This document shows, piece after piece, positions 520-63,253 of a DNA stretch of 64,000 nt. The stretch spans positions 124,001 through 188,000 of the forward strand of contig JAWKAU010000039.1 of assembly GCA_033398695.1 (NCBI GenBank), given 5' to 3'. Below the pieces are notes generated by a model. It was not told where the DNA came from. It did not search any database and saw only the letters and a program-made list of their open reading frames with translations. This DNA comes from Orobanche coerulescens. Lineage: Eukaryota; Streptophyta; Magnoliopsida; Lamiales; Orobanchaceae. Both the position numbers and the translations under genes were made by a program. Each line of letters opens with the position of its first letter. Position 1 is the stretch's first letter.

Positions 520-734
520 TGTAATACCCGGTTGTAATTCAGTATTTATCATTCAGTCATTATCACTCAGTAATTTCACTCATTATTGATCATTTGTCAC
601 TCATATTCAGTCATGGTATTCATCATTCAGAGTAATTGTATCGTGTATCAATCGTCATTCATCACTAATCTGATTGGAGTTTCGTGCCGCGTTTATCATC
701 ATTGTCATTTTCGTTGCGAGCTGTGCGTGAGGAG

Positions 735-1302
735 TAGCGCACGCTACATACTCCTTTTAGCGTACGCTAATTGGGTATAGGTAGCGCACGCTACCACTCA
801 GCTTTAGCGCACGCTAAGGTTGTCCTGGCCGCGATCCGGAAAGGTACTTGGGTGCAGGTGAGATTATTTGTAGTGCACGCTACGAGTGGTAAGTAGCACG
901 CGCTAACGGGTTGTAGTAGCGCACGCTATATGTGTGGAGTAGCGCGCGCTAGGGACGGATCAGGTTGAGTCCAGTGGCTACTGGACTGCACTGGATTAAT
1001 TCACAGCGCACGCTATGTGTTGTTGTTAGCGTATGCAACCGATATATTAGCGCACGCTAAACAATGGTTGTAGCGCACGCTATCGGGTCCGATCGAGGTC
1101 GAGGCAGTTTCTGGACTCCAGTGCTGGGCATCTATATTTCGTTAGCGCACGCTAATAATTGGTCTTAGCGCACGCTAGTAGTATGGCCGTAGCGCACACT
1201 ACAAGAAGGTACGTAGCGCGCGCTACCGTGTTCGGACAGTGGGTACTGGACTACCCAAATTACTCGTTAGCGCATGCTACGCACAAGGGCTAGCGCACGC
1301 TA
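735..1302 (+). repeat. TAGCGCACGCTA dyad array in U3 of LTR A (about 18 units)
   Basis: Exact and near copies of the 12-bp dyad TAGCG-CA-CGCTA start at about 735, 758, 782, 805, then 871, 894, 917, 940, then 1005, 1027, 1048, 1070, then 1143, 1166, 1190, 1214, and finally 1268 and 1291. Spacing within blocks is 21-24 bp, mostly 23. The roughly 11-bp spacers are unrelated in sequence, so this is not a simple tandem repeat. Blocks are separated by segments holding a second inverted repeat (968-987). Confidence 0.95.
968..987 (+). repeat. Companion inverted repeat AGTCCAGT-GGCT-ACTGGACT
   Basis: Perfect 8-bp arms with a 4-bp loop sit between blocks of the dyad array. Partial or diverged versions occur in the arrays of L2 (about 7610), both LTRs of C (about 21235 and 33045), the solo LTR in C (about 23410), H (about 36975) and J (about 62603). 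Confidence 0.8.
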
Positions 1303-1314
1303 ACCTGGACTGAC

Positions 1315-1322
1315 TATAAATT
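1315..1322 (+). promoter_or_regulatory. TATA box of LTR A
   Basis: TATAAATT lies 12 bp after the last dyad unit and upstream of the presumed R region. Its placement in the LTR fits the core promoter of the element. Confidence 0.7.
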
Positions 1323-3406
1323 GGACAGTTTAGTCAGAGTTCGTCATTTATTCATCTCATTTCATTCCTTCGGTAATTTTGGGCGATTTCGAGCGATTCG
1401 GAGAGGATTCTTCGAGGTGTATTCATCAATCATCATCTTCAAGCTCATCTTTCGGGTTAATCATCATTTCATCATCTTCATCACATCGAATCAAAGGTAT
1501 TAATCTCTTGGATCTAGAATTTCGGATTTTTGGGTTTTTCCTTCCGATTTCTTCGTGTAAGCTTGGATTATCATTGGAATATGTTAGATATAGATTATCT
1601 ACCTTGGATAAGTATATTCTTATGGATTTAATGGTTATTTTCAGAATTATTTCAAGAACCCTTGGGGTTGACTTCAGTTATTTTGGGGATTTCCGATTGT
1701 CGTTATTATAAACTTGAATTGTGGATTTCCATGAGATTATTGATGTCATTAATAATGTTGTGCTGGTTTGAATCAATCATTTTGGAGTTGGTTCGATAAT
1801 TTGGGTTTGGTTTTAACCAACGGGTATCTCAACGTTTTCGTTAGAGTACATCTACGAGTTCGGATATTGTTGTATCGACGTTTGGGTCGGTTATGATCGT
1901 ATTTGATTCGTGTATTGATCGGTTGTTGGTAATTGTTGTTGTTCAAGGTTGTTCGAGCGACCGAATTTTCAATAGGACGTTGTTCGTGGAAGGACATTGT
2001 CATCGGTATTGAGTAAGTTAATTCTTACTCGGTTAAAAGGATATTCATTCCTTTTGATGTTGTTCATTCATAATCGTAACTCATTCATCATTGTATTAAC
2101 CGTACCAAAACTTGTCATTGTCAATTAATCACTTGATCATAAGGAGCAGCGGTTCCAATCATTTCATTAAGTTGTCATTCATTCCACCATCATTTAATCT
2201 TGGTGAGTCATTATTCATTTTCGTTGTCACTTTTGTCATATTGTGGCATTAGGGTCATCTTGGCGTGCGGTTGGTATGTGTAGGATTTTCATGTCGGGCA
2301 CATTATAGTCGTGTGTTGGTTGGTGGCCTCACATTGGGTGTGCACACGAGTTGATGGCTTCGTGAGACTGATTAGGTACAAGACCACACGTGTATTCGGT
2401 CGATGCTCGTTGGTGGCTTGTGCACGGACACATTTCCATCCCGGACGTAGTGTGGCGCCATTCCTTTGAGCCGTACTGATAGTCGATTCATATAGCATGT
2501 TTGATTGCGTATGTTTCGACAGGATAATTCATAATTTCAGATATATCATGATTGTGTATTTTCAACCCTTGAGGATTGTTGTTACGTATGGCCCGACCCG
2601 TTGGGGATCTTGCTGTGTCATGGCAAGGCTAAGGCACGGGAGAGCACGGTGGCGGCGAGAGTCAGTGATACTAGTAGGGGGCCAGTCTATTCGATCACTT
2701 ATGTTTTCTTCATTTATTCCATTGCAGACATTCCGTTTGAATATTCATTTCACTCGGTGTTGTATATTTTATCTCCATATAAAATATACTTGTATTGATA
2801 TCATCACAGGTATGTTGTATGAAACTCCTCATCAGAGTAATTAATTGTGTAATGTGGTTCGGTACTACATTTACCTGTGTAATTCATTCATTTTCATTCG
2901 CCTGGTGGGTCCCAGTCGGGGGTCCACGGCACTGTAATATCCGCCTAGTTTGGGGTGTTACAAATGAATACTATGCAAAACAGAAATAACTGACTACAAC
3001 TCGACTAAAACTCGACCGTTTCTTCAGAGAGAAAAACAGTGTCGTAACATCGGTATCACACAAATAGAAGCACGAAAAATTCACGAATAAAGAAAAACTA
3101 AGACAAGCAAGGCTATCTAAAAAAAAAAAAATTTTACGCAAAGTAGACCAAAATCTAAAAAGCGAACAACGAAAAGCAAATAAAAGCAAACACGAAAGCA
3201 AAACACTACTACGACCTAAAAAATAGAAACTAGCAAACACACCAAACGAAAATGAACATAAAAATCTAAAAACTAAGCAACAAAAGCCAAAACCACGCAA
3301 CACCAATATGATAAGCACAAATAAAAACAACGGGCACCAACACAAGCAAATAATGATACAAGGCATACAAGGTACTCACACGTAAAGAAATTAACAAAGC
3401 CGCACT

Positions 3407-7213: not shown

Positions 7214-7364
7214 TGTAATACCCGAGACTTCTGTTATGTAATTGGAACTTGTGATATTGTAATGATTGTACTTGATTTGAGTATTATTTTCCGTATTTCA
7301 TAATCCGATGTTGTCGAGCGTTTAATTCCGTGATTGTGAATTAAAGATTGTAAATCTGCGCATG

Positions 7365-7661
7365 TAGCGCACGCTATCAGCTATGTTTAGCGTGCGCTAA
7401 CGTGGGTTCATAGCGCAGGCTACTGAGTGTCCTTAGCGCACGCTATGCGCGGTCAAATTGATTGAGACGTGCGGTAGGTGAGAGCTGGCCGGGGGACCCC
7501 TGTCGGATGGTGTCGGGATGTACCTGGACGTCTTTCGGGGAAAAGCCGAGTCAACGCCTTAGCGCACGCTACAGGTATATGCGTAGCGCACGCTAAGTGC
7601 CGAGTACAGTTTAGTCCAGTGAGCCGTTAGCGCACGCTACGAAAGGGTCTAGCGCGCGCTA
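7365..7661 (+). repeat. Dyad array upstream of TATA in L2 (8 units)
   Basis: Units start near 7365, 7388, 7411, 7434, then 7560, 7584, then 7628 and 7650, spaced 22-24 bp within blocks. One unit has TG instead of CA at the centre. Spacers are unrelated. Confidence 0.93.
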
Positions 7662-7673
7662 ATAGCCATTTAT

Positions 7674-7680
7674 TATAAAT
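7674..7680 (+). promoter_or_regulatory. TATA box of L2
   Basis: TATAAAT, 12 bp after the last dyad unit. Confidence 0.7.
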
Positions 7681-8345
7681 AGAATGACATCCTATTCGTG
7701 ATTTCAGTTCTCTCTACTCCCATTACGAGTTCCTACACTTAGAACATGTCTTCCTTCATCCTAAACATCTCATATCAACATCCTGATTCGTGATTGAAGA
7801 TCGTTTATCATTGGAGATTGTTGTTCAAGCTTTCGGTGTCGGATTGCTTCATTTTCCTCCGTGTTCTTCACTACTTGAGGTAGGTGATTCTTCACTAATG
7901 TTAGTAATGTTCTTAAGGACGTCTGATCATGCTTAGATAGCCAGTTATTTCGTTTATGATCGGTCATCACATGATAGAAGGATACTTTGACATATCGGCA
8001 CTATTTATCTTATGAACCTTTGAACCGTCTTAGTAGATTGGACTCCTAAGCGTTTTCAAATCAATTTATGATCAGTAATCGGATATTACACAGTTGCTAC
8101 GTTGTACACGTTGGAATCATGTGTTTTGGGACTTGGAATAATCGGAACTTAGAATACTTCCTGAAGATCTTAGAAAAGATATGATATTGAGATGACTATC
8201 CGTATATTTGTATTTCACGATCACAAATCTTCCACAAACCTTATTAGCATGATTTGCCCGAAGATAACTTGTATTATCACGGTAGAATTCATGAGTTCTT
8301 CACCATTCAACCGATTTCGGTTTGTAGTATTACGCCATGCAATAT

Positions 8346-8529
8346 TAGCGCACGCTAACACATGTGCGTTAACGTGCGCTATCGGGTCGATTAACGCCCG
8401 GCGTACGTAGCGTACGTTATGAGACGGCCAGTCGATTGCGGACCGTGGCTAGCGACGCTAGTCTTACACGATAGCGTACGCTAACAAGTTCGCTTAGCGC
8501 CGTTACGTGAAATACGTAGCGTCACGCTA
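8346..8529 (+). repeat. Second, degenerate dyad cluster downstream of TATA in L2
   Basis: About eight worn units start near 8346, 8370, 8392, 8408, 8450, 8472, 8494 and 8517, keeping mostly 22-24 bp spacing. The cluster lies about 670 bp downstream of the TATA box, in the transcribed leader. H has a matching smaller cluster at 37977-38034. Confidence 0.8.
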
Positions 8530-9484
8530 AGCGATTCGAGCATTGTATTTTATGAACTTTTGACCGTGAATCGAATTGTTAAACATTCATGCGACGTGAG
8601 ATAAATCCTATATCATTTCTTTTGTTAAGGTTTGGCCTCGTTACGTGATTGATTGAGGAGGACGACCGTCGAGTGTTCATTTCGTGGAAGTATTGCTATT
8701 ATCTTCAAATCGAGGCAAGTACCTTGATATACGAATTATAATTACGTGAAATCATTGTTCTTTGAAGTATATGAATTATGTCATGAATATACGTATTTAT
8801 ATATATATAGATATGTGTGGATATTTATGTAGTATTAATTGATAGAGTTGAAGGCCTAATGTGCAAAGTCTTGATGAATAACGTGTGAGTTATTGTTTAT
8901 TTTGCGTAGTTGCATCGCGAATAAATTATGTGGATTGATGAACTGATTTGATAATTGTGGCAACGGTTGGTATGTGCTTGGTATTTGTAATAATGTGAAT
9001 ACTTGTTATGAGAGACGTCATATCCGGGTACCTCGAGGGCGGGGCGTGCACTCCGGCTTTGTATGGCCGCAATGAGCGGCTCCATATGATTGGTGAACAC
9101 CGGTGTTACTTAATGCGCGAGCAAGGGGCGGCTCTGTGGGAGTGAACGCCGCGCGGTGACATGTGCAATGGGCGGCCAATATAGTGGAGTGAACGCCGGT
9201 ACAGTGTGTGTAAGGGAGGCGCACGCGTGCTTATTGGTAACGGATATTTGAGTAATAGCTAAGACCCCGTTATCAAATGATTTTGAAATTTAAATCTTTG
9301 CAACTTGCTTTGAATGTTGGTCTTGATGTAGACCACGGATTGTGTTTCGGAGTTCGTTCCAATTTGTTTTAAATGTTGGTATCGGGGTTAATTAACCAAG
9401 GATATTTGACGAGATCTCCGAGGGTTAATTAATCAGGGGTCTTGAGCAGGATTTGTCGAATGAGAGGTTGTGCCTTTGATTGTC

Positions 9485-9720
9485 TTGTGTTGATTATTAC
9501 GTGTATTGGGTCGAGGACCCGTGAGATGTTGAGATTTGATCTCGTGATGATATTATTTGGATTGGGCCGAGAACCCCGTGAGATGTTGTAATGATTCACT
9601 TGTGATCTTGCTTTATCATTTGGGTCGAGGACCCCGAATAACGTTGTGATAGTTTTCTTGCAAATTGTTTTCCACATGTTGGGTCAAGGACCGAGAGCTT
9701 TGAGGTATTTTGAAAGTATT
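9485..9720 (+). repeat. Degenerate direct repeats around GGGTCGAGGACCC in L2
   Basis: GGGTCGAGGACCC and variants (GGGCCGAGAACCCC, GGGTCGAGGACCCC, GGGTCAAGGACC) recur four times at about 55-65 bp intervals, with GTGAGATGTT often following. Each core is itself a short inverted repeat. Confidence 0.7.
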
Positions 9721-10008
9721 TCCATTTGATTTTCAAAACCCTAGATGGCCCGAGTCAATATTAATGTTTTCGAACCTGTCTTATCAAAATACTTTTCCTT
9801 TTATAAAAGGGATTTCTCCGACTCCTTGGGCTCGTTTAAAGTTTCATTGGTGTTATGTTCTCAGACGGAGAATATGACAATATGGTTATCTTTCATCTTG
9901 TGTATGTAATACTATTCCGTCTTCGACCATTTGAATGTGTGGTTTGTGTTAAGGTTTCACGACTATTGAGTTTTGTGTTATTATTATTCGTATATCTTGT
10001 GTGTTGTG

Positions 10009-10060
10009 TACTTGCACTAGCAAAATTCCGGTTGCTAACCCCGAGTTTCGGGGTGGGTGC
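10009..10060 (+). promoter_or_regulatory. Conserved U5 hairpin of L2
   Basis: CTTGCACTAGCAAAA is followed by TTGCTAACCCCGAGTTTCGG with GGTGGG after it; the CCCCGA...TCGGGG stem is at 10039-10053. The same block, with different loop sequence, is in C (19173-19215 and about 30975-31020), F (34036-34049) and J (61614-61650), so the stem is kept while the bases change. Confidence 0.65.
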
Positions 10061-10465
10061 CTGTTATGCGCTCGAGTTTTGGCGGCTCAGAGCGATCCAC
10101 AGGATTGGCTGGGAAGGAGATGGAGGACAATGATACTAATCACACCAGAGTTAGAGTCTTTTCTTTTGTTTCATTTTGGTCGGTATTACTCTGTCGTTCG
10201 AGTATTCACCCTTGCATGGGTGTAGTTTTAATTTATTAAATTGAGTTGTCGTTCTTTTCTGTGTTCAAGTTTATTTTTATCATTGAGATGTAAAGTTCAT
10301 TTGTTTCTGAATTGTTTAATGACCTTGTCGGTCTGCGTTGTATTTAGATTGACCCCGGTCGGTCAATCATTTTGTAGTCTAGTAGAGTTTAGCCTTGTAG
10401 ATCCTTGTTAGAAGGGCCTACGGCGTGTAACATTTCCGGATGTATTCTGGGGGTGTTACACAATC

Positions 10466-18810: not shown

Positions 18811-19172
18811 TGTAACACCCCCAATCCGCTCAGGGATATTACACGCCGTAGACCCTCTCCTCGAGGATCTACCAGGCTGATAACTAAAATCAAACATCTA
18901 AACATCGCCTTTAAGGCTAAAATGACTCAGTAGACCGATTTGGTCTTTCAATAATAACATACAACTCAATTCCAAACACATACCCACGCAGGGGTCAAAA
19001 TACAATAAACTCCCATACAACGGGGAAAAGATACTGCAGCGGAAAAGAAAATACAACTAGATCAATACGACATCAACGGATCCTCGTGTGATTAGTATCG
19101 TTCATCTTTCATCATCCTTCGTGCCGACCCTGTGCTATGCTCCAAAACCTGAATGCAAAAATAGACATCCAC

Positions 19173-19215
19173 CCCCCGAATACTCGGGGGTTAGCAAAAC
19201 TCCACTGTTTTGCTA
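19173..19215 (-). promoter_or_regulatory. U5 double hairpin in the 3' LTR of C
   Basis: CCCCCGAATACTCGGGGG (19173-19191) is followed by GCAAAACTCCACTGTTTTGC (19194-19213); both are stem-loops. The same pair is in the 5' LTR near 30975-31016. The first matches the GCTAACCCC hairpin in L2, F and J. Confidence 0.7.
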
Positions 19216-21051
19216 GTGCAAGAACAAAGTGCAAATACGAGCCATAAAATTCACATTCCACGAATAAAAATAACCAGGAATCCTCAAAGATTCAAATACA
19301 ACAGGATGAACACTTCCCGAGGCAAGAGTTTGAGTAAAGACTTCCCAAAATTTCAAGATCAAAATATCGATGGAAACAATTTGTAAAATGATTTGAAATA
19401 CCATCGGGAGTTTTAATAGAAAACAATTTAGGATTATCAAATCCTACTTTTCAAAATCCAAAAGACGAAAGGGGTCATCGCCCCAAAGGTTTACTTTTCG
19501 AAAAATGACCTTTACCAAACCGTTGGGATTTTAGCCCCAAATCCATAAAATGACTTTTACAAAACCATTGGGATTTTAGCCCCAAATCTCATCAACTCAC
19601 AGTACACAAGAATGACCACAAGGTTCGCCTCCCAACATCAAAATCCACAAATAAAGGATTTAACACAAACAACAAAATACTCTAGTGCCATCCTAGCCAA
19701 GTAGGCCAAACGAACAACTTACCTCTTACACACTTAGTCAATGCATGCACTCATGAAAACCGTTCGAAAGCACTCATTTCCGGAAATGCCATAATCAAAT
19801 CACATTTTCAAAATGCACCACAATTAACCGTCGATCCACGTCTCTGTGGACCCCTACCGAGACCCCGTCGGATCTAACCCGTAGTGGTTAAAAGCAAGCT
19901 CGTCGATCCACGTCTCTTGTGGACCCCTACCGAAACCCCGTCGGATCTAACCCGTAGTGAGCATACACACACACACGTTACTCATGCAATACTAACATGC
20001 TAAGAATGTAAGTTCATTAAGAATACTCACTAGAGATGGCCATTAACTCGACACCATTATCAAACTCTTCAAAAACACCACAACAATGATTAAATACGGA
20101 ATACACGATCCCATAACTTTAAACACAGGAGTATCATCATCAAAGACTTCAACGTTCAAAATAATCAAATCATAATGAATTCCCAAAACACAACGTTCAC
20201 AAAACACACACGCATTTTGAAAGAGAGCCTTTAACGAGTCTTTTGAAACTTCATTTCAAATAACCAAACAAACACATCAAGACGACCACCGATCATCATA
20301 TCCATAAAATGAGAAAAGTATGGGCAAGATACTTGCCTCGAATAACCACAACGCGGAGAGTCGGCCGAAGTAGGTTGGCACGAACCGACTACGAACTCGC
20401 CGACTCCACCGAACGACAATCCACAACAATGAACTACGAACGAAAACAATAACAACGAAAATGAATTCCAAAGTATGACCCAAAGCCGCTGAATTCAAAG
20501 AACAAATGACGAAAGTTCAAGGATTTTCCCCAAAACGGCCAAGAACACGATTCGTCCCGTCAAAACCCGAAAACGGAATTCCAAGTTGAAATATGGAAAT
20601 ACAATCCATAGAATATGTTTAACAACATCATTTAACCATAATCGATCCATCGAAAACGGATGAAAAACGAAACCGAGGACAATTCCCCTAAAAAGTCAAT
20701 TCGAAGGAAATCAAGAAATATACTTCGATTCGACGAAGAACAATGGATTAAATGATGTTAAACACAAGAATACTACCAAGATTAATCATACCCATCATGA
20801 ATTAATCAACAACACGGAACGAATCGGACAAAAATGCAAAACCCCCCAAATTCACGAAATTAGGGTTCTAAGGTAAGATTACCTTGATTCGCTGGATCAA
20901 AGGATGATAACGGATGATTGATTGATGTTATGAACTCAAGAATTTCGTGGATTTGATGTTAAACAACATGGCTTCGTCCTCTATGAATCGCCAGTCGCGG
21001 ACGGAGAAGGAAGGAAGTGAAAAATGAATGAAAACGCGACTGCTCGGTCAC

Positions 21052-21058
21052 ATTTATA
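21052..21058 (-). promoter_or_regulatory. TATA box, 3' LTR of C
   Basis: Minus strand TATAAAT, 11 bp from the nearest dyad unit (21070-21081). The same arrangement holds at 32865-32871 in the 5' LTR. Confidence 0.7.
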
Positions 21059-21069
21059 CTGGGCCGGAC

Positions 21070-21479
21070 TAGCGTGCGCTAGCCTTCCCGAACTAGCGTG
21101 CGCTATCGGCCGAGTACCCTCGGCCAGGGCCCGCACGACCCGGCACCACCGACCAAACCTGCCGACCAAACCTGCCGACCCAACTCCCGATAGCGTGCGC
21201 TACGACCGGAAGCCTGCGCGCGCTAGCCGGCCTGTCCAGTAGCCTCTGGACTAAACAGCTCGCCCTGGTAACGTACGCTAGTCGTCCGACAGCGTGCGCT
21301 ACCCCTGCCGGTTAACGTGCGCTACGACCGACCGTAGCGTGCGCCACCTGCCGATCCTGACCGAGTCCAGAACCTCAGAACCCCACTGCCCAGACCCGAT
21401 AGCGTGCGTTAGGCCAGCCGATAGCATGCGCTACACCTGACGGTTAGCGCGCGCAGCCTTCCGGCCGTAGCATGCGCTA
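21070..21479 (-). repeat. Dyad array in the 3' LTR of C (about 12 units)
   Basis: Read on the plus strand as TAGCGTGCGCTA and variants; on the element's own strand the centre is CA as in A, L2 and H. The first two units start at 21070 and 21094. Units near the middle have TA centres or lost arms. The companion inverted repeat GTCCAGTAGCCTCTGGAC is at about 21234. Confidence 0.9.
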
Positions 21480-22057
21480 CGCCGGTTCCTGCCGCACCTG
21501 TCCGAACGGTGCACGCAATCGTCCGGCCAGTCCCGCAACCGTCCGGCCAGTACCCGACCACCAGGGCTCGACGACTCGATTTCCAAAAACGTAAGGAACG
21601 AACACGATGAAAAGTTCGCGGACAACATCAATGACCCGAAATGAAAACATAATACTATAATTAATCATACGCGACCAAAAAACGGGTCGAGACAACAATT
21701 ACAGATACGGATACCCGTAACTTTCAAGAAATTACCAAAATGGCCCAAAATACCCGGAAATCATGATACGTGATCGAATAACCAAACCGAAGTTCACAAC
21801 ACGTCTAACAAAGTTAAACGGACTTACGGGAAACTCGAAACAGCAGTTTCGAATGAGATTCGCAAGAATCGAACTCAAGTGCGGAAAAGTCGCTAAAAAG
21901 CACGGAACTCAACAAAACGACACCGAAACAAACTCGGATGTCAAAAAGTGTAGAATTAATCATTCTCAGAATGACGAAACGGTCATGAGCGAGTCGTCAA
22001 AACAGACTCCGAACGAAAAAAGAAATTTACCGAAAATTGAAAATTGCGGATATTACA

Positions 22058-22839: not shown

Positions 22840-22978
22840 GAACCCGTTGGAATATTTATTCCACACATTATTTAATTTGTGTTTTGATGATTAAAGTTGC
22901 TAAATAACAAAACAACATCGAGGCGAAGCAAAACGACGAAGCAGACGAAGACGCAAAAAGTTTCAATCTGGACTGCAT

Positions 22979-23521
22979 TAGCGCACGCTAAAGCATATAT
23001 GTTAGCGCACGCTAACGGGAAGAAATCTGCATTCCAGCCAAGTTTCGATGTAGGCTGCAGTGAAGTCAGCTGTTGAGATAGCGCACGCTACACGGTATCA
23101 TTAACGCACGCTATCGAGCCTTGTTACCGTTGTGAAGGAATTCAAACACAGTATAACGTATGAAATGAAGTCAGCTTTAGCGCACGCTACAAAGTATGAA
23201 TAGCGCACGCTAAGAAGTTTGAATCAAGTCAATCAGAACGTTGGAAAGATTCGGCGGAAAGTCAAGCATCAAACGGATAGTTTGACAAGTAAAGGCAACG
23301 GATATATTACGTTAACGCACGCTACTCATTCATGGTTAACGTACGCTAAGTAAGTGAGATAACGTACGTAAGGCAGAAGGCATAACGTACGCTAAAGAAG
23401 AAACGAAGCTACTGGACTGAAAGTGGGAACAGTCTAGCGCACGCTACATGAAAGATATTATGCACGCTAAAACAAAAATGTGCGATAGCACACGCTAAGA
23501 AGGAATAGCTAGCGCACGCTA
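22979..23521 (+). repeat. Dyad array in the copia-like solo LTR (about 14 units)
   Basis: Units start near 22979, 23003, 23079, 23102, 23178, 23201, 23313, 23337, 23360, 23383, 23435, 23457, 23486 and 23510. The within-block spacing is 22-24 bp. Several units have TAACG in the left arm. Confidence 0.93.
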
Positions 23522-23563
23522 GCTAGTCAACTGGCAGCAACGGCTAGTAAGGAGGAAGAAGGC

Positions 23564-23570
23564 TATAAAT
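23564..23570 (+). promoter_or_regulatory. TATA box of the copia-like solo LTR
   Basis: CTATAAATACC context; 42 bp after the last dyad unit, further than the 9-12 bp in the gypsy LTRs. Confidence 0.7.
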
Positions 23571-24087
23571 ACCAAGGAGTTGGTATTATTCCACACAACA
23601 ACATTGAGCAAAGCATCCATACGTGTTATATCATTGTAAACATTATAGTTGTTGTTCTTGAGCTTGATTAAGAGTGATTGAGTGTTATACACAAGATCAT
23701 ACACGAGCGAGAAAAAGAAAAGATACGATTTGATTCGGTGTTATTAGGATCAAGGATCCAGCATTGTTAGAATCACAATCGCTATCTTAGTGAGGTTTAT
23801 CTAGTACCGATAGAAAGCTAGAGTGGTTGATTCCTTATCCAATAGAAAAGGAAAAACGGTTTTACTCGGATCGATAGAAGACGAGCTTGTAACGGTAATC
23901 CCTCGACCGATAGAAGAGAGGCGTAGAGGTTTTGATCTTAAGCCTAAAGAAAAAGATACATCGAGAGAGGACGTAGGCTTCGTTAATAGCCGAACCTCTA
24001 TAAATCCTTGTGTGATTTATTTTCCGCAATTTATTTTCGCTTCCGCATAAAACGGCGCAAATATCCGATATGGTACCCAACAGAACC

Positions 24088-25471: not shown

Positions 25472-25476
25472 ATGAT
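25472..25476. repeat. Target-site duplication ATGAT of element B, left copy
   Basis: ATGAT is repeated exactly at 30460-30464. Confidence 0.95.
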
Positions 25477-25645
25477 TGTTAGGCGTATTTTTATGCGCTT
25501 TTATATCATTATTTTATATCCATCTTGAGCCTAAATCAGCATAAATGAGCTTTTAATGCATTATTTTTATATGTTTTGTAGGAAATCGGAGTCCGGAAGC
25601 CAAAACGATGAAAAACGGGCGAAAATAGCAGTTTTTAGTCATGAG

Positions 25646-25746
25646 CCGCGGCACACACCAAGTGAACCGCGGCACACGAAGACAACCAGCGAATGATGTG
25701 CACACTGTACTGTGTGCCGCGGCACACACCAAGTGAGCCGCGGCAC
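25646..25746 (+). repeat. Paired CCGCGGCAC boxes in U3 of element B
   Basis: CCGCGGCAC starts at 25646 and 25667, and again at 25717 and 25738, so each pair is 21 bp apart, with ACACCAAGTG between boxes in both pairs. CCGCGG is a 6-bp palindrome. The TATA box is about 200 bp downstream. The 3' LTR has the same set near 29344-29445. Confidence 0.88.
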
Positions 25747-30612: not shown

Positions 30613-33600
30613 TGTAACACCCCCAATCCGCTCAGGGATATTACACGCCGTAGACCCTCTCCTCGAGGATCTACCAGGCTGATAACTAAAATCAAACATC
30701 TAAACATCGCCTTTAAGGCTAAAATGACTCAGTAGACCGATTTGGTCTTTCAATAATAACATACAACTCAATTCCAAACACATACCCACGCAGGGGTCAA
30801 AATACAATAAACTCCCGTACAACGGGGAAAAGATACTGCAGCGGAAAAGAAAATACAACTAGACCAATACGACATCAACGGATCCTCGTGTGATTAGTAT
30901 CGTTAATATTTCATCATCCTTCGTGCCGACCCTGTGCTATGCTCTAAAACCTGAATGCAAAAATAGACATCCACCCCCCGAATACTCGGGGGTTAGCAAA
31001 ACTCCACTGTTTTGCTAGTGCAAGAACAAAGTGCAAATACGAGCCATACAATTCACATTCCACGAATAAAAATAACCAGGAATCCTCAAAGATTCAAATA
31101 CAACAGGATGAACACTTCCCGAGGCAAGAGTTTGAGTAAAGACTTCCCAAAATTTCAAGATCAAAATATCGAGGGAAACAATTTGTAAAATGATTTGAAA
31201 TACCATCGGGAGTTTTAATAGAAAACAATTTAGGATTATCAAATCCTACTTTTCAAAATCCAAAAGACGAAAGGGGTCACCGCCCCAAAGGTTTACTTTT
31301 CAAAAATGACTTTTACCAAACCGTTGGGATTTTAGCCCCAAATCCATAAAATGACTTTTACAAAACCATTGGGATTTTAGCCCCAAATCTCATCAACTCA
31401 CAGTACACAAGAACGACCACAAGGTTCGTCTCCCAACATCAAAATCCACAAATAAAGGATTTAACACAAACAACAAAATACTCTAGTGTCATCCTAGCCA
31501 AGTAGGCCAAACGAACAACTTACCTCTTACACACTTAGTCAATGCATGCACTCATGAAAATCATTCGAAAGCACTCATTTCCGGAAATGCCATAATCAAA
31601 TCACATTTTCAAAATGCACCACAATTAACCGTCGATCCACGTCTCTGTGGACCCCTACCGAGACCCCGTCGGATCTAATCCGTAGTGGTTAAAAGCAAGC
31701 TCGTCGATCCACGTCTCTTGTGGACCCCTACCGAGACCCCGTCGGATCTAACCCGTAGTGAGCATACACACACACACGTTACTCATGCAATACTAACATG
31801 CTAAGAATGTAAGTTCATTAAGAATACTCACTAGAGATGGCCATTAACTCGACACCATTATCAAACTCTTCAAAAACACCACAACAATGATTAAATACGG
31901 AATACACGATCCCATAACTTTAAACACAGGAGTATCATCATCAAAGACTTCAACGTTCAAAATAATCAAATCATAATCAATTCCCAAAACACAACGTTCA
32001 CAAAACACACACGCATTTTGAAAGAGAGCCTTTAACGAGGCCAAACCGAAATCTTTTGAAACTTCATTTCAAATAACCAAACAAACATATCAAGACGACC
32101 ACCGATCATCATATCCATAAAACGAGAAAAGTATGGGCAACATACTTGCCTCGAATAACCACAACGCGGAGAATCGGCCGAAGTAGGTTGGTACAAACCG
32201 ACTACGAACTCGCCGACTCCACCGAACGACAATCCACAACAATGAACTACGAACGAAAACAATAACAATGAAAATGAATTCCAAAGTATGACCCAAAGCC
32301 GCTGAATTCAAAGAACAAATGACGAAAGTTCAAGGATTTTCCCCAAAACGGCCAAGAACACGATTCGTCCCGTCAAAACCCGAAAATGGAATTCCAAGTT
32401 GAAATATGGATATACAATCCATAGAATATGTTTAAAAACATCATTTAACCATAATTGATCCATCGAAAACGGATGAAAAACGAGATCGAGGATAATATCC
32501 CCAAAAAGTCAATTCGAAGGAAATCAAGAAATATACTTTGATTCGACGAAGAACAATGGATTAAATGATGTAAAACACAATAATACTACCAAGATTAATC
32601 ATACCCATCATGAATTAATCAACAGCACGGAACGAATCGGACGAAAATGCAAAAACCCCTAAATTCACGAAATTAGGGTTCTAAGGTAAGATTACCTTGA
32701 TTCGCTGGATCAAAGGATGATAACGGATGATTGATTGATGTTATGAAATCAAGAACTTCGTGGATTTGATGTTAAACAACATGGCTTCGTCCTCTATGAA
32801 TCGCCAGTCGCGGACGGAGAAGGAAGGAAGTGAAAAATGAATGAAAACGCGACTGCTCGGTCACATTTATACTGGGCCGATCTAGCGTGCGCTAGCCTTC
32901 CCGAACTAGCGTGCGCTATCGGCCGGTATCGGCCGAGTACCCTCGGTCAGGGCCTGCACGACCCGGCACCACCGACCAAACCTGCCGACCCGACTCCCGC
33001 TAGCGTACGCTACGACCGGAAGCGTGCGCGCGCTAGCCGACCTGTCCAGTAGCCTCTGGACTAAACAACTCACCCTGGTAACGTACGCTAGTCGGCCGAC
33101 AGCGTGCGCTACCCCTGCCGGTTAGCGTGCGCTACCCCTGCCGGTTAGCGTGCGCTACGACCGACCGTAGCGTGCGCTACCTGCCGATCCTGACCGAGTC
33201 CAGAACCTCAGAACCCCCTGCCCAGACCCGATAGCGTGCGTTAGGCCAGCCGATAGCGTGCGCTACACCTGCCGGTTAGCTCGCGCGACCGGCCGTGGCG
33301 TGCGCTCTGGCCGGTTCTCGCCACTTTGTCCGGCGGTGCCATAATCGTCCGGCTAGTCCCGAATCGTCCGGCGGCGATGCGACCACCAGGGCTCGACGAC
33401 TCGATTTCCGAAAATGTACAGAACGAACACGACGAAATTACAGATACGGATACCCATAACTTTCAAGAAATTACCAAAATGGCCCAAAACGCCTGGAAAT
33501 CACGATACGTGATCGAATAACCAAACCGAAGTTCACAACACGTCTAACAAAGTTAAACGGACTTACGGGAAACTCGAAACAGCAGTTTCGAATGAGATTC

Positions 33601-33796
33601 GCAAGAATCGAACTCAAGTGCGAAAAAGTCGCTAAAAATCATGGAACTCAACAAAACGACACCGAAACGAACTTGGATGTCAAAAAGTGTAGAATTAATC
33701 ATTCTCAGAATGACGAAACGGTCATGAGCGAGTTGTCAAAACGGACTCCGACCGAAAAAAGAAATTTATCGAAAATCGAAAATTGCGGATATTACA
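30613..33796 (-). mobile_element. 5' LTR of element C (3184 bp)
   Basis: Collinear with 18811-22057. It differs by scattered substitutions, an 80-base absence near 33440, and changes in array unit number. Confidence 0.92.
32883..33307 (-). repeat. Dyad array in the 5' LTR of C (about 13 units)
   Basis: Matches 21070-21479 but has one extra unit: the segment CCCCTGCCGGTTAGCGTGCGC with TA after it occurs twice in succession near 33112-33157 and once in the 3' LTR. A 10-bp duplication (near 32923) and a 13-bp difference (near 32985) also distinguish the two arrays. Confidence 0.9.
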
Positions 33797-36266: not shown

Positions 36267-36579
36267 TGTAATACCCGAATTTTCAGTATGAATTTTTTGC
36301 GTTATTTTATCTAAGATATACTGGATGGCTTGGTGTCTATACAGTATGGATAAAATAAATTGAGAACTGAGACAGTTGTATTTGTACTCGTATAACTGTC
36401 GTAGTGGTTCGACAATTATTTTGAGGATACCGTGTATCAGGTTATCGTACTTTTGATATTGGATATATCGTATGATGATGTTATTGGATTCAGTACATGT
36501 ATTTAGTATGCAGTATGTTCGTATTTTGATATGTCGAGATGGACGAGGAGAACTGGAAAATGGCTAAGTATAGCCTGAT

Positions 36580-37070
36580 TAGCGCACGCTAATGTTCAAG
36601 TATAGCGCACGCTATCGTTCATGGTTAGCGCACGCTAGAGGCGGAATGTAGCGCACGCTAAATGCAGTCAGATCGGAAGGAATCTGCGTGTAGACCCGGC
36701 TGCTTTCGGCGCACGTTCTCGTAAGTTAACGGTTGTTGTCCTGAAGTATTAGCGCACGCTAAAGCATGAGGCTTAGTGCACGCTAATTGTAGATCGGTAA
36801 AAGGGAATCTTATCCTTGTTAGATCGGCATGTGGGGCACATGCGGTACGTAGACTGTAGCAAGTCAACTGATATTAGCGCACGCTAAATGTAAGGACTTG
36901 CGTACGCTAAACAGTGTGAAATACGTACGCTAATGCATGGGCATTACGTACGTAAGCTCATGTTCGAGGCAAGACAGTGGCCTCTGGGCTGCGATAGCGC
37001 ACGCTAACAAAGTCGGTTAGCGCACGCCAAGGCCGTAGCGCACGCCAAACATAAGGTTTAGCGCACGCTA
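36580..37070 (+). repeat. Dyad array in H (about 14 units)
   Basis: Units start near 36580, 36603, 36626, 36649, then 36750, 36774, then 36875, 36898, 36921, 36944, then 36995, 37018, 37036 and 37059. All but one within-block step are 23-24 bp. The companion CAGTGGCCTCTG lies at about 36975. Confidence 0.94.
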
Positions 37071-37081
37071 GTAATACACTT

Positions 37082-37090
37082 TATAAAAAG
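37082..37090 (+). promoter_or_regulatory. TATA box of H
   Basis: TATAAAAAG, 11 bp after the last dyad unit. Confidence 0.75.
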
Positions 37091-37976
37091 GGGACAGACG
37101 GGTGTTATGAAACATTCTCGTCCATTTCTTTCCTTTCACTCGATAGAGAGAGCTTTGGGAGGTACTTGAGTTCCTAAAACACTATGAGATGATGATCTTT
37201 AACGAGATTAAGATGGAGAGCATGGATTCAAAGCTTTGTTCTTGAAATTATTAATGAGTCTTGAAATGGAGTTCATAGAGAGAGAGTCTTGAGGTTCCAA
37301 ATACTGGATTATGATGGAGTTGAGCTTCCTTATCAACATTTGGAGCTTGGAAATGATTGGGAACGGATTCAACCTTGATAATCCATCCTTTTCTTCAAAG
37401 AGGTAATTAATCTTCACTTTGGATTTCGTTTTGGGGATTGAATATTGGTGTTCTTGAGTTGATACTTATCATATTAATGAGTTGATAAGTATGATTTCGA
37501 GATGGCTTCCTGGGTAACATTGATGTTATTGTTGGTATGCGGATATTGATATGTTTTGTATGGTTTTGAATGGTGTTCAGGAGATATGTCGATTTATGTC
37601 TCCCTTCATTTCGGATTTGATGTTAAGATGATATACGGATATATATGACTTAGGTGATTAATTACATGTTAGCATATCGGATTATGATGGTTGTCATGAA
37701 CGTGATTATGGAATCATGGTACTTTTAGTGTTCTTGGTATATATATCATCAAAGAGGAAGGATATATGTTGGTTTGATTATTAACATGGATAAGATAATT
37801 GAAACTAAACATTATGTTGATTGTAGTGATTGAGTTCGTATGATAAGATATGGATCATGATGATGAGTTTTGATCTGGAAAGTTATTGTTAATCTTGGAG
37901 TAATATTTCCTTTTCATTCGAATTCGTAGTCGCAAGGTGTTATTCGATGCTTGGAATGCATGCCACTGTACAGCAT

Positions 37977-38034
37977 TAGCGCACGCTAAGCTTACTGGAT
38001 AGCGCACGCTACGTTATGCGTTTAACGCGCGCTA
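37977..38034 (+). repeat. Second dyad cluster downstream of TATA in H (3 units)
   Basis: Units at 37977, about 38000 and 38023, 23 bp apart, preceded by ATGCCACTGTACAGCAT, a relative of the sequence before the second cluster of L2. Confidence 0.85.
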
Positions 38035-39500
38035 AGTAGGCAGACAGCGTAGTATTTTCGTGTTGTGATTATGAATTCATGATGGGTTGAACTGGATTGT
38101 TTAACACTGTGTTTAATCGAGATATTGTGGAATTGTTGGGTTATTGATCGGTTATTGATTGATAATTATGATTTATCGGATTTCGGCTTGTATTGTTGAT
38201 ATGAGTTCGTAATTGTTTGAGTTGTATTGTTCGATTTTGTAAATGATCGAGGTATTGTTGAACCATTGAGTTTGATTGGTTGGTTATACCGGTTATTGAT
38301 TATTATCGGATATGTTGTCATTTGATTATTGCATTAGGTCGCGATAATTGAGCGTTGATTATGGCCGTTGTGTTGCGGTCAAGGTTGGAGAGTTCGTAGG
38401 TTGCTTTTGGTCGGGGCTGAGGAGCTCGGAGACGAAGGCAATGGATTCAGTAATGACTTCGTGGTATCGGTATCGAGGCAAGTTTATACTTGTTCAGTTT
38501 ATAATATTTGATGAATGGTATCGTTTTCATTTCATTTATAATTCGTATGGCGATGTTGTTAGAAAGGTAAGTTGTCGGTTAACGAGTTGTATATCGTGCT
38601 CTGGCTTGTATTAAATCATAAGGTATATGATTTAATTGTGTTCAAGGAAGACGTGAGTTATCTTTGGTCAAGGGTATAATATATCGGATATCGAGGATAG
38701 TTAACGTGATGACATAAGTATCAGGATAAAGGTTTATTGGTATTGAATGGATGGTACCTTATTTGAGATTATTTGAATAACTGTGTATTCGTTCAGGGAT
38801 GTTGCTCGTGGAAAGAATATTGTCTTCAGCTTTGAGGTAATTCTAGTATTATTCAGTTATGAGGATAATTGTTTTGAGGAATTATTGTATATGTGTTGTA
38901 CGTTGATGTTTCGTATGCTGGGATTCGTATTGATTACTTCGCTGAGGGATGATGATCCCAGGGTTGATTGTATTGAGATCATTGATCATGTTGATTATTT
39001 GTCGGGGATGATGATCCCAGGATTATTGTCTTGAATATTGATTAGTCGTGTCGACATTTCACTGTCAGTCTGTTGTTTCACTTCGGTGAGTCTTTTGATC
39101 CTTATTGGATATGTGATTCTTTGAGTTTCGTTGTCATGTTGCATCGTGACATATCTGGAATCATATCTGCGTTCCGATTGGTTATTGTGTAGGATTTTTA
39201 GCCAGGCGCATGATGGTTATGCGTGGATCTAATTTCCGCATTAAACCGTGCACACGAGACATAGTTCGTGAGGCTAATTAGGTACAAGACCGCACGTGTA
39301 TTTGATCGATACCCGGGGTGGCTTGTGCACGGACACATTTCCGGATCGGGCGTACTGTGATGTCCATCTTTGAGCCATACCGTTTGGTCGTTCATACTTC
39401 CATGTATGATTGGATATGTTCGACGGTTTGCGACTGGTTGTTCATACGCCCGAAGGGTATGTTCGACAGCCAGAGTTATTTCTTTGAGATCCATTATTGT

Positions 39501-39895
39501 TGATCATTTGGAGTCTACCTTGTTGAGGGTATTCTCGGTTATTGTTGGTCCTTTGTTGATCATTTGGAGTCTACCTTATTGAGGGTATTCTCGGTTATTG
39601 TTGGTCCTTTGTTGATCATTTGGAGTTTATCTCGTTGAGGGAATTCTCGGTTATTGTTGGTCCTTTGTTGATCATTTGGAGTTTACCTCGTTGAGGGAAT
39701 TCTCGGTTATTGTTGATCTTTGTTGATCGTGTTTGGAGTTTACCATGTTGAGGGTATTCTCGGTTATTGTTGATCCTTGTCGATCGTATTGGAATTCATC
39801 ATGTTGATGATAATTTCGGTTGTACTTTGACCTTGGGTTGGTCATATTGGAACTCATCATATCGATGATATTCTCAGTGATGTATTGGTTGATCA
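39501..39895 (+). repeat. 56-bp minisatellite in the leader/U5 of H
   Basis: TGATCATTTGGAGTCTACCT with TGTTGAGGGTATTCTCGG following recurs at 39501, 39557, 39613 and 39669 (period 56), then decays at about 39724, 39781 and 39838. Confidence 0.9.
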
Positions 39896-40892
39896 TTGTT
39901 ATTAATTGTATGAGCATTCGGACTGTACGTCGATGTTCGGGATTTGTTATCATTATCATGTGGTAGTTGATCTACAGATATGTTGTGTATTATTGGTTTG
40001 TCTAGGTTGAGATTTGATTGTGTAATCCGGCGGACAAGATTTGGCACAGATTGGATTATTTTCGCACTTATGAGTTATGAGGACGATTTGAGGACACTTG
40101 GTATTGTTTGAATACAGTACAGTATAATTGTTGTTGAGTTCTTTTCGTCATTTGAGAATGCGAAATGTGAATTATGGTAAGGATCGATTTGGTATGGATT
40201 GCCATGGATTGGTAAGGTTATGACGATAAGTTTACATTGGTAGTATTCTTACAGTATTATTACATTAGTATGTAATTATTTATGATGATGTGATCATTAT
40301 CATTATCGAGTATTGTGGCTGACCCCCTCGTGGGCTTTATTTTTAGGTACTCGGAGATCGATCTAGTAGCGGTCGTGAAGGGATGAGCTTCCCGATGTGA
40401 TACTGCCGGTGGCATGTTTTGGAGTATCGAGTATTTCTTTTCTGGTTATTCATTTCCGCTGCAAATGTGTATTTTGAACTGTGTTTTTATCCGCTGCGTG
40501 TGTATATTTCAAAATGGCTTTTCGGTATCTTTATCCGCTGCGTGTGTGTATTTTAAAAGGGGTTTTTGGAATTTTACGAACTTGGGTTATTTTCGTCAAA
40601 CTCTTTTTCCCAAATTATTTTATCGGTACGTTTAAGTGGTAGCTTAACGTACATTTTGAACTGTCGAGAATTGGCACTTCGCCTTGTATTTTCAAATGGT
40701 ATTTTATGACGGTATTTGAGAACTTTGTTTTTGAAAATATTTGAGTATTTGCAAAATATTACCATCATCGGCCTCTTTGGCTTTTTGAACGTTTTTGAAT
40801 TGGTTTTGTAAACGGTTTTTAGCCTGGTGGGTTCCAGCGCGGGGCCCACGGCGCTGTAATATCCCGGATGGTTTTGGGGGTGTTACAGTTTA

Positions 40893-61232: not shown

Positions 61233-61613
61233 AGGTGTAACACCCCAAGACATTCGGGCGTATGACATACGGACCCCACACCGTGGAATCCACCAGGCTA
61301 ACATACCAAACAAGACATTCGACAACGACAACAACGATCAATAATACGACAATTCAAATAAGATTACAATCCGACAATAAATTCCAACATTAATCCATTT
61401 CCCAAACAGGAACACAACATTAACAATTTTGTAAAAGAAGTACTCGAGTACTTAAACCAGTTTTTATAAAACAAAATCCCCAAAGCAAGATATCAAATAT
61501 TCGACATATAGAACATCAATAATCAACTTAAGACGATCATGCTCGCCCATCATCCTCATACGGCTCTAGTGCTCGCTTGTCCCCACGATTAATACGAAAT
61601 ACAAAAAGTATTT

Positions 61614-61650
61614 CCCCATTTAAGGGGTTAGCGACAAATTCTAGTGCAAG
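61614..61650 (-). promoter_or_regulatory. U5 hairpin of J
   Basis: CCCCATTTAAGGGG with GCTAACCCC sense context, followed by the CTTGCACTAG block; equivalent to L2 10009-10053. Confidence 0.65.
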
Positions 61651-62537
61651 TACAATCCATTTGAACTACATTCTAATCGATGAATATATGCGCCAAAAGT
61701 CATTTTAGAAAACATTTTATATTAGGAATATTTATGATGTACACACAAAACACATTATCTCCAACAAATCATAATTCAAAGTTAACCGTTGCACGAGACT
61801 CACGGCCACCGTACTCGCAGAGCCGTCGGACATCCACGGTGGCTAACCACGATTCGTGATACGCACACACACGGCAATACGTATCCCTAGAGGCCCCGTC
61901 GGACCGTCCCTAGGTGAACATACACATATCTCCCCACAACAACCACATATAGCCATAATTCAAATACTAGAACATGTAAACAAATGTAAAGTACTTGCCT
62001 TTGAGACATTCTTGAAGAAACGGAGATGAAACACGACTACGAACGGTCCGGTGGAAAGCGGCGGTTCCTAAACGAAGGATCAATACGTTCAGTCCCAACG
62101 GACAACAATATTCTCTTGGAATACACCCATAACCTCGTTTACAATATAAGACTATAGTCGGTCAATTGATACGTTCGAGTGTTTACGAAAAATCTCCCCG
62201 TATCGATACTTCACAGATTAAAATCATGGAATTTGGTTTTGGAATCATTCAACAATCACAAACGGTGAAGAATATCATAACATCTGGAATAATTCGGTTC
62301 CAATTAGCAAAACCCGGAAAAACCCCCAAATTTGACGAGTTAGGGTTCTGGCGAAAATACCTTGATTTCGGATGATGGATGACGATTATGCTGATGATAA
62401 TATGTTGGCACGACTCTACGGTGATGGAATGTGAATAGAACGCCGATCAGGACTGATGGAAATCGCCTCTGAGGTCGCACGTCGAAGAAACGAAGGAAAA
62501 AGAATGAAACTGCTGCTCTGAAAACTGCCCGCTGGGC

Positions 62538-62545
62538 TTATATAA
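62538..62545 (-). promoter_or_regulatory. TATA box of J
   Basis: TTATATAA, 9 bp from the nearest dyad unit at 62555. Confidence 0.65.
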
Positions 62546-62554
62546 TTGTGAAGT

Positions 62555-62712
62555 TAGCGCACGCTAACTGTCATATATAGCGTGCGCTAACGGGGTCGTG
62601 ATAGTCCAGTGGCTACTGCCACCATTCGTTAGCGTACGCTAACAAAAGGGGGTTAGCGTACGCTAACTGCTTATCGGTAGCGCACGCAAGGGAACAGGGG
62701 TAGCGTGCGCTA
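62555..62712 (-). repeat. Dyad array in J (6 units)
   Basis: Units start at 62555, 62578, 62630, 62654, 62678 and 62701 (23-24 bp apart, one gap of 52). Two units have TA centres, and CA and TG centres are mixed. The companion AGTCCAGTGGCTACT is at about 62602. Confidence 0.92.
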
Positions 62713-63253
62713 CCTACACAGCAGTTCAGCACTGCTGATGTCACACCAGCAGTAAGCTGCTGTCGAGGGTCTAAAACACGAAACGTACGACGAGACCAGA
62801 ATCCAGGAACATAGACGCGAAGCATACAAGACGACGGAGCTAGGCGCTGAAAGAAAATACAATTCCGACCACCGGAGGGTCCGTTATGCGATAACGAAAC
62901 TAAGATTCCCTAAACTATTAGGAAATTACAAAAATGGCCCAAGTGCCCGAAAATCACGAAACGACGTCGGATTTACAAACCGAAAGTCTCCACATGACCA
63001 ACTCAACCATACGAACTTGTACAAACCAAGAAACAACGAAAACGAACGAGTTTTACAAGAGTCGAACGTTCATACGGCAAAACATGTCATAAAATGAAAT
63101 TACGTGAAAACACCATCAAAACTCGTCCAGATGGAAAAACTCCAAGAACAAAATAGATTCAAAATGTCGAAACGGTTACAAGCGAGTTGATAAAAATAAA
63201 CATACACCAAAAATGGAAACTGCTAAAAATAGAAAAAAATTACGGATATTACA

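What the first reader, a model, noticed from the sequence alone, without database searches (positions are those of the whole stretch)
735..1322. A 12-bp dyad repeated in a 23-bp register in LTR promoters
TAGCG-CA-CGCTA occurs about 18 times in U3 of LTR A. Start-to-start spacing within blocks is 21-24 bp, mostly 23, and the roughly 11-bp spacers are unrelated. A constant motif with fixed spacing and free spacers points to selection for protein binding on one face of the helix, rather than ordinary tandem duplication. About 90 exact or worn copies occur in seven LTRs in this window.
Basis: seen in the sequence. Interest (0 to 1): 0.88.

Follow-up and report, generated by a model that had tools for sequence, protein, structure and literature searches.

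The report
Paired palindrome grammar in retrotransposon promoters
A 12-letter palindromic DNA word occurs 1.3 million times in this plant genome (likely a broomrape); in the retrotransposon promoters examined it stands mostly in pairs 23 letters apart and, in most of them, in step with the TATA box, and it is likely the landing site of a still unidentified protein that would switch these elements on.

Summary
TAGCGNNCGCTA has 53 exact copies in the window, all in seven LTRs; with up to 2 mismatches 18 lie in LTR A and 88 in all seven. Of 81 gaps, 50 are 22-24 bp (null mean 5.1, maximum 14). Genome-wide: 1,320,899 exact copies against 3,402 for the reversed pattern; 409,914 pairs 23-24 bp apart against 21,995 in the 18 bins at 25-42 bp.
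New here: (1) the unit is a doublet of dyads; 110 of 133 blocks hold 2 or 4, and middle gaps of tetrads vary more than outer gaps. (2) The TATA box takes the next slot, 22-24 bp after the last dyad's start, in 6 of 7 window LTRs and at 92,534 places genome-wide. (3) A second dyad, AGTCCAGTNNNNACTGGACT, shares many of these promoters: 16,376 copies against 1. (4) Five chromovirus-type LTR families and one unrelated, probably copia, LTR share the module.
Most likely a homotypic promoter-proximal enhancer for a dimeric host factor. Closest known: Sirevirus palindromic RM boxes. 'One face of the helix' is not supported; 23-bp unit gain or loss does occur.

The parts
520..2962 (+). LTR A, 3' LTR of a chromovirus-type Ty3 element (TGTAATACCCG...GGGGTGTTACA)
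   Evidence: ends read; integrase and chromodomain-like tail upstream (1-483) read by eye only; frame 1 of that stretch holds stops
735..1302 (+). Array A: 18 dyads in blocks 4,4,4,4,2
968..987 (+). Second dyad AGTCCAGT-GGCT-ACTGGACT between blocks of array A (this copy served as the query)
1233..1252 (+). Second dyad, degenerate copy (4 mismatches)
1315..1320 (+). TATAAA, 24 bp after the start of the last dyad
7214..10460 (+). LTR B, solo LTR, 5-bp target duplication CAATC
7365..7661 (+). Array B, blocks 4,2,2
7674..7679 (+). TATAAA, 24 bp after the start of the last dyad of B
8346..8529 (+). Second, worn array of LTR B, about 0.7 kb downstream of its TATA box
18811..22057 (-). LTR C, 3' LTR of the same minus-strand element as E
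   Evidence: target duplication GGCAC/GGTAC (one difference)
21070..21479 (-). Array C, blocks 4,4,2,2
21053..21058 (-). TATAAA, 23 bp after the start of the last dyad of C
21233..21252 (-). Second dyad in C (2 mismatches)
22845..24082 (+). LTR D, solo LTR with copia-type ends (CGTTGG...CCCAACA, target duplication GAACC), nested in the C-E element
   Evidence: superfamily inferred from recalled LTR ends
22979..23521 (+). Array D, blocks 2,2,2,4,4 (with two weak sites of 3 mismatches)
23399..23418 (+). Second dyad in D (6 mismatches, half-site ACTGGACT intact)
23564..23569 (+). TATAAA of D, 54 bp after the start of the last dyad: the exception to the register
30613..33796 (-). LTR E, 5' LTR of the C-E element; PBS-like sequence next to its lower end
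32883..33307 (-). Array E, blocks 4,5,2,2; the 5-block has one 23-bp unit more than C
32866..32871 (-). TATAAA of E, 23 bp after the start of the last dyad
33043..33062 (-). Second dyad in E (2 mismatches)
36267..40887 (+). LTR F, solo LTR, target duplication GTTTA
36580..37070 (+). Array F, blocks 4,2,3,4
36971..36990 (+). Second dyad in F (6 mismatches, weak)
37082..37087 (+). TATAAA of F, 23 bp after the start of the last dyad
37977..38034 (+). Second array of LTR F, about 0.9 kb downstream of its TATA box (3 dyads)
61236..63253 (-). LTR G, 3' LTR of a chromovirus-type element (SH3_Tf2-1 hit and a sub-threshold chromodomain hit in the adjacent ORF 63292-63948)
62555..62712 (-). Array G, blocks 4,2
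62603..62622 (-). Second dyad in G (4 mismatches)
62539..62544 (-). TATATA of G, 22 bp after the start of the last dyad

Best explanation
The arrays lie just upstream of a TATA box in the LTRs and are likely a promoter-proximal enhancer made of repeated binding sites for one still unidentified dimeric host protein, predicted to sit as two dimers on each pair of 12-bp dyads 23 bp apart. Shown: the dyad TAGCG-YR-CGCTA; its pitch; grouping mostly in doublets and tetrads; the TATA box in the next slot (22-24 bp) in most arrays examined; a second dyad AGTCCAGT-NNNN-ACTGGACT in many of the same arrays; the same grammar in LTRs that outside the arrays align only in short blocks, or (D) not at all. 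Inferred: a symmetric half-site pair means a homodimer; the doublet means a dimer of dimers; the fixed step to the TATA box means that the bound complex touches the TATA-binding machinery and raises transcription of the element; the second dyad binds a second factor. Arrays probably grow by tandem duplication of 23-bp units (one unit gained or lost between C and E), after which spacers drift and dyads are kept while the lineage still transposes. Once inserted and dead, copies are not protected.
For: Motif and pitch. Position: array 5' of a TATA box, in LTR orientation, in 7 of 7 window LTRs; start-to-start offset 22-24 in 6 of 7, in 13 of 18 arrays of 17 other loci, both strands looked at, the two LTRs of L050 counted apart, and 92,534 genome-wide places in 3 bins (reversed control 7) against 58,234 in 18 bins at 25-42 bp (control 14), some of which are the same TATATA run read two bases on. 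Offset histogram in held sequence: 12-21 x2, 22-24 x24, 25-26 x7, 27-40 x0. Doublets: 2 or 4 dyads in 110 of 133 blocks; tetrad outer gaps exactly 23 in 78 of 106, middle gaps in 20 of 53, variance 0.78 against 4.32. Second dyad: 16,376 against 1; in the window 7 places with up to 6 mismatches, all inside the arrays. Selection: shared variants in 13 of 87 variable motif columns against 149 of 450 non-motif columns, Fisher p 5e-4. Sharing: D has no blastn match to the other LTRs once the motif is masked.
Against: No binding protein, expression or methylation data were available. D's TATA box is 54 bp away; 5 of 18 other arrays lack the register. Counting 23 and 24 bp together, outer and middle tetrad gaps do not differ (86 of 106 against 40 of 53, p 0.41). 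The second dyad is within 4 mismatches in only 8 of those 18 arrays and 8 or more mismatches away in 5. Within families, spacer length changes per substitution were not fewer inside blocks than between (8.3 against 6.1 per 100). In the LTR pair C/E the dyads differ at 11 of 144 sites, no better than upstream U3 (37 of 488) and worse than other array bases (9 of 248). Motif columns were picked by matching the motif, which favours low divergence there. Family members are not independent. The centre is CA in 63 of 88 sites, more orientation bias than a symmetric dimer needs.
Confidence: 0.6

Rival explanations
1. Anti-silencing platform: a protein bound to the CpG-containing dyads keeps the LTR unmethylated or removes methylation, as VANC proteins do on VANDAL transposons; activation is indirect.
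For: Dyads carry two or three CpGs; CpG observed/expected 1.22-1.54 in arrays against 1.08 in the rest of the window. VANC targets are short motifs accumulated in tandem repeats of non-coding TE DNA, and VANC6 motifs also occur in AT9TSD1, which is not a VANDAL (PMC5735166, passages).
Against: The register with the TATA box is not required by this reading. The VANC motifs named in those passages (YAGTATTAY; AGTTGTCC/AGTTGTAC) differ from this one. No methylation data here.
Confidence: 0.2
2. Host repressor sites: a host protein recognises the dyads to silence the elements, and the repeats persist as by-products of duplication.
For: 1.32 million copies genome-wide would make an efficient silencing address.
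Against: Elements that lose the sites would escape, yet arrays are large, shared between families and show fewer shared variants in dyads than outside.
Confidence: 0.08
3. RNA-level element: the U3 copy at the 3' end of the genomic RNA folds into hairpins used in packaging or processed to small RNAs.
For: Array A folds better than shuffles as RNA (z -4.57, 100 shuffles; only A was folded). Palindrome arrays pair with one another by construction.
Against: A 12-bp dyad with a 2-base centre cannot close a full hairpin on itself (recalled minimum loop 3), and a fold does not explain the TATA register or the doublet pitch.
Confidence: 0.06
4. Mere minisatellite: a 23-bp unit spread by slippage and the dyad is the slowest-changing part.
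For: LTRs C and E differ by one 23-bp unit, spacer included. Spacer length is not protected within families. Tandem Repeats Finder reports several short 22-24-bp arrays.
Against: Spacers show almost no similarity within arrays (0.345 against 0.294 shuffled). After insertion the dyad is not slower than its surroundings, so a low mutation rate cannot explain its conservation. Block parity and TATA register are unexplained.
Confidence: 0.06

Closest known systems
Sirevirus repeated motif (RM) boxes (Bousios et al. 2010, PMC2829016; outline, sections 7, 9, 11, 13 and passages read)
   Same: Palindromic boxes in 3-14 copies in the 3' LTR, clustered upstream of a TATA box, CpG-rich, flanking sequence divergent
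   Different: Reported as specific to Sireviruses (Ty1/copia), with a CGG-CCG core (Tnd-1 excepted) and one consensus per element. Here mostly chromovirus-type Ty3 LTRs, core GCG-NN-CGC, one motif shared by several families of one genome, a doublet unit, a second dyad and a TATA box in register; the parts read mention no such grammar
CpG islands in LTRs of Del (Tekay) chromoviruses (Cruz et al. 2014, PMC4029996; outline, section 21 and passages read)
   Same: Probably the same lineage (inferred); CpG-rich, variable 5' LTR region
   Different: That paper reports predominantly no CpG island in the cluster that holds all its eudicot Del elements, and its main text does not hold words beginning with tandem or palindrom
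VANC target motifs of VANDAL transposons (Hosaka et al. 2017, PMC5735166; passages read)
   Same: Short motif multiplied in non-coding TE DNA through tandem repeats, read by a sequence-specific protein; one such motif also occurs in an unrelated TE family
   Different: Different motifs, DNA transposons, reader encoded by the TE; no TATA register named in the passages seen
Su(Hw) site array of the Drosophila gypsy element (recalled, nothing read)
   Same: About a dozen similar sites with unrelated spacers in a Ty3-type element, bound by a host protein
   Different: Zinc-finger insulator downstream of the start site; not palindromic, not in step with a TATA box

Membership tests
Sirevirus RM boxes | Host element is a Sirevirus (Ty1/copia) | tested here: not met
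   G: adjacent ORF hits SH3_Tf2-1, chromodomain below cut-off; A, B, C, E, F, G share TGTAATAYCCG...GGGGTGTTACA ends. D is copia-like by its ends only, lineage not settled here
Sirevirus RM boxes | Palindromic repeat in many copies in the LTR upstream of the TATA box | tested here: met
Sirevirus RM boxes | CGG-CCG core signature | tested here: not met
   core is GCG-YR-CGC; table 3 of PMC2829016
Sirevirus RM boxes | Clusters form CpG islands | tested here: inconclusive
   CpG observed/expected 1.22-1.54, GC 0.44-0.67 in arrays; the CpGplot criteria were not run
VANC-type anti-silencing targets | Motif YAGTATTAY or AGTTGTMC read by a TE-encoded protein | tested here: not met
   motif differs; an encoded reader was not looked for
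Minisatellite / tandem repeat | Whole unit, spacer included, conserved between copies | tested here: not met
   spacer identity 0.345 within arrays, 0.294 shuffled; local exceptions in several LTRs
Ty3 chromovirus (Tekay/Del) | Integrase with C-terminal chromodomain | tested here: inconclusive
   G: Chromo 21.8 bits, cut-off 25.1; A read by eye; B and F are solo LTRs, and the interior of C-E was not tested
Transcription-factor binding array | A protein binds the dyad | not testable with these tools
   needs EMSA, DAP-seq or pull-down

The most novel reading that the evidence does not exclude
One host regulator has been captured by several unrelated LTR retrotransposon lineages of a parasitic plant through a shared promoter grammar, doublets of a 12-bp dyad at 23 bp with the TATA box as the next slot plus a second dyad, so that 1.3 million sites answer to one factor and this shared switch powered the growth of a 3.6-Gb genome.
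Probability: 0.3. Interest if true: 0.87.

Novelty: new variant of a known kind. Interest (0 to 1): 0.66.

Why it matters
Plant LTR promoters are hard to study because their sequences hardly align. Here a plain grammar (dyad, doublet, pitch, TATA slot, second dyad) can be read from sequence and recurs across families. It makes the question of what switches on the abundant retrotransposons of a large genome directly testable with one oligonucleotide probe, and it extends palindromic LTR boxes beyond the Sireviruses. With 1.32 million exact copies, a large part of any such factor's sites in this genome would probably belong to transposons.

Tried and rejected
Same-face helical phasing: 23-24 bp is not a whole number of turns; Rayleigh test of 19 larger gaps (typed from the earlier listings, E left out) p 0.085 at 10.5 bp; the best period of the scan was 12.0 bp (p 0.0076 over the scanned periods), for which I have no structural reading. 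Protected spacing within families: not seen. Exact strings in papers: 31 papers hold at least one of six strings, 20 listed, none of the listed titles about plant retrotransposons. Plant relatives in public collections: viral contigs gave 4 stretches and genome contigs 21, all of viral or prokaryote records, GC 0.46-0.72. Proof that D is copia: the genome search with its R-U5 part was asked for twelve times and never answered; in held sequence D had one 36-bp match, to motif-like bases of array F. LEAFY-type CCANTGG in the second dyad: in only two of the seven window copies, A and G. Literature searches for the same thing; absence of a description rests on these listings and on the passages read only.

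Rows dropped or chosen: E left out of the spacer, parity and larger-gap tests because it is the partner LTR of C, but kept; LTR pairs L050a/b and C/E skipped, while L062/L063 and L065/L066, which may also be LTR pairs, were not; columns with a mixed motif call dropped. Of 20 stretches asked for, 3 do not exist; of the 17 got, 8 hold a dyad and L050 alone holds 36 of the 75 sites. L051-L060 were picked by hand from the first hits on C1 and L061-L067 because spacers looked like families A, B, C and F.

Full report
What was checked. Over the window 53 exact copies (0 in 100 shuffles) and 88 with up to 2 mismatches fall in seven LTRs and nowhere else. Gaps of 22-24 bp are 50 of 81, against a mean of 5.1 and a maximum of 14 in 2,000 random placements.

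Where we are. The host is a plant, likely an Orobanche (broomrape): the TPR gene at 49276-50187 matches Orobanche minor at 93% identity and O. gracilis at 83%, with Rehmannia next at 69%. The genome held has 3,646,015,169 bp in 1,279 contigs. Ty3 elements of the Tekay clade are abundant in Orobanche (9.74-12.7% of diploid genomes; PMC4381496, passages). LTR limits: A 520-2962, B 7214-10460 (solo), C 18811-22057 and E 30613-33796 (read as the two LTRs of one minus-strand element), D 22845-24082 (solo, nested), F 36267-40887 (solo), G 61236-63253. A-C and E-G have chromovirus-type ends. With the motif masked, A/F, B/C, B/E, C/F, E/F, C/G and E/G share blocks of 46-184 bp at 69-83% identity, so these are distant relatives; C/E align throughout. 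D has different ends and no such match. That D is copia rests on recalled LTR ends.

Genome-wide scale. Exact TAGCGNNCGCTA: 1,320,899 places against 3,402 for the reversed pattern. Pairs at 23-24 bp: 409,914. Pairs at 25-42 bp: 21,995 over 18 bins, about 168 times fewer per bin. The tool calls such counts lower bounds. Seventeen stretches (162 kb, chosen by coordinates) show the same gap peak, 23 x27 and 24 x11; 8 of 17 hold a dyad and one, L050, holds 36 of 75 sites.

Motif and spacers. Motif positions carry 1.38-2.35 bits, positions around them at most 0.30 (82 sites with up to 1 mismatch). Spacers are barely more alike within arrays (0.345) than between arrays (0.308) or shuffled (0.294). 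The centre is a pyrimidine-purine step in all 88 sites, CA in 63.

Doublets. Over 31 sources (7 window LTRs and 24 loci, E and both L050 LTRs included) block sizes are 1:12, 2:57, 3:9, 4:53, 5:1, 6:1, that is 111 of 133 even and 110 of size 2 or 4. In 53 tetrads the outer gaps are exactly 23 in 78 of 106, the middle gap in 20 of 53; variance 0.78 against 4.32, Levene p 5.8e-5; with window families only (24 outer, 12 middle gaps) p 0.03. Counting 23 and 24 together the two do not differ (86 of 106 against 40 of 53, p 0.41) (all). Copies of one family are not independent, so the smaller test is the safer one. In the window alone (E left out) even blocks are 23 of 27 at the 3-mismatch setting and 23 of 31 at the strictest. 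The unit is therefore most simply read as a pair of dyads; tetrads are two pairs with a looser joint.

TATA register. The first TATA box after the last dyad begins 24, 24, 23, 54, 23, 23, 22 bp after that dyad's start in A-G: 6 of 7 in register, D the exception. In 17 other loci of the genome 13 of 18 arrays have it at 22-24, 5 do not. Genome-wide, 92,534 places at 22-24 bp (reversed control 7) against 58,234 over 18 bins at 25-42 bp (control 14), part of which are the same TATATA runs. In held sequence the counts are 2 at 12-21 bp, 24 at 22-24, 7 at 25-26 and 0 at 27-40.

Second dyad. AGTCCAGT-NNNN-ACTGGACT was found by reading and k-mer counts. With A's own copy as query, 7 places in the window have up to 6 mismatches, the query included, and all lie in the arrays of A (2), C, D, E, F and G; 60 shuffles give 1.2 on average, maximum 4; at up to 4 mismatches 5 against 0. 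The F and D copies are weak; B has only a half-site. Elsewhere it is within 4 mismatches in 8 of 18 arrays and 8 or more mismatches away in 5. Genome-wide exact count 16,376 against 1.

Evolution. The LTR pair C/E shows what happens after insertion: dyads 11 differences in 144 sites (8 transitions), other array positions 9 of 248, upstream U3 37 of 488, downstream 45 of 2,256. Dead copies are thus not protected at the dyads. Between copies of one family (A 7, B 3, C 5, F 4, some of them LTR pairs) motif columns differ 3.5-12.3% and non-motif columns 10.9-28.0%; variants shared by two or more copies are 13 of 87 variable motif columns against 149 of 450 non-motif columns (Fisher p 5e-4). Motif columns were chosen by their match, which biases this test in favour of the claim. 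One 23-bp unit is present in E and missing in C; which way the change went is not known, but it shows that whole units come and go. Length changes per substitution were not fewer inside blocks than between them, so strict selection on spacing within families is not shown.

Mechanism. The simplest reading is a homotypic promoter-proximal enhancer: a dimeric host protein binds each dyad, two dimers share a doublet, and the last doublet stands in a fixed step to the TATA box. Protein, expression and methylation are not tested; the factor is unknown. Rivals (anti-silencing, repression, RNA structure, plain minisatellite) are given with their tests.

Known relatives. Sirevirus RM boxes (PMC2829016, outline, sections 7, 9, 11, 13 and passages) are the same kind of thing: palindromic, many copies, CpG-rich, upstream of a TATA box. 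Membership fails on two defining features, the CGG-CCG core and the Sirevirus host element. Del elements of eudicots were reported as predominantly without CpG islands in their LTRs (PMC4029996, section 21). I found no description of this motif, the doublet unit or the TATA register in the searches made, which cover an open-access library only and whose hits I mostly saw as listings.

Noticed in passing
window 1-64000: CpG observed/expected is 1.11 for the whole window and 1.08 outside the arrays, high for old, presumably methylated plant transposon DNA.
   Followed up: no
window 8346-8529 and 37977-38034: LTRs B and F carry a second dyad array 0.7-0.9 kb downstream of their TATA box; role unknown.
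   Followed up: partly
window 25476-26772 and 29174-30460: A pair of 1.3-kb direct repeats, 98% identical, probably the LTRs of a nested element, without the dyad: not all LTRs here carry it.
   Followed up: no
window 43034-43506 and 47401-48140: Two recent tandem duplications, units of 234 and 369 bp, 98% matches.
   Followed up: no
L005-L025: Prokaryote genomes hold TAGCGNNCGCTA pairs 21-25 bp apart (the pattern allowed only these distances); they may be double operators for dimeric regulators (recalled). One Tannerellaceae MAG repeats TAGCGGCCGCTA at 23 bp on three contigs (L010, L016, L018).
   Followed up: partly
listing: Three of the four listed papers that hold TAGCGTGCGCTA are on Epstein-Barr virus (search listing only); likely the EBNA1-bound Qp region (recalled), a dimer bound to a similar dyad.
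   Followed up: no
window 46279-47091: ORF that reads like a hAT transposase remnant by eye; no Pfam hit.
   Followed up: no
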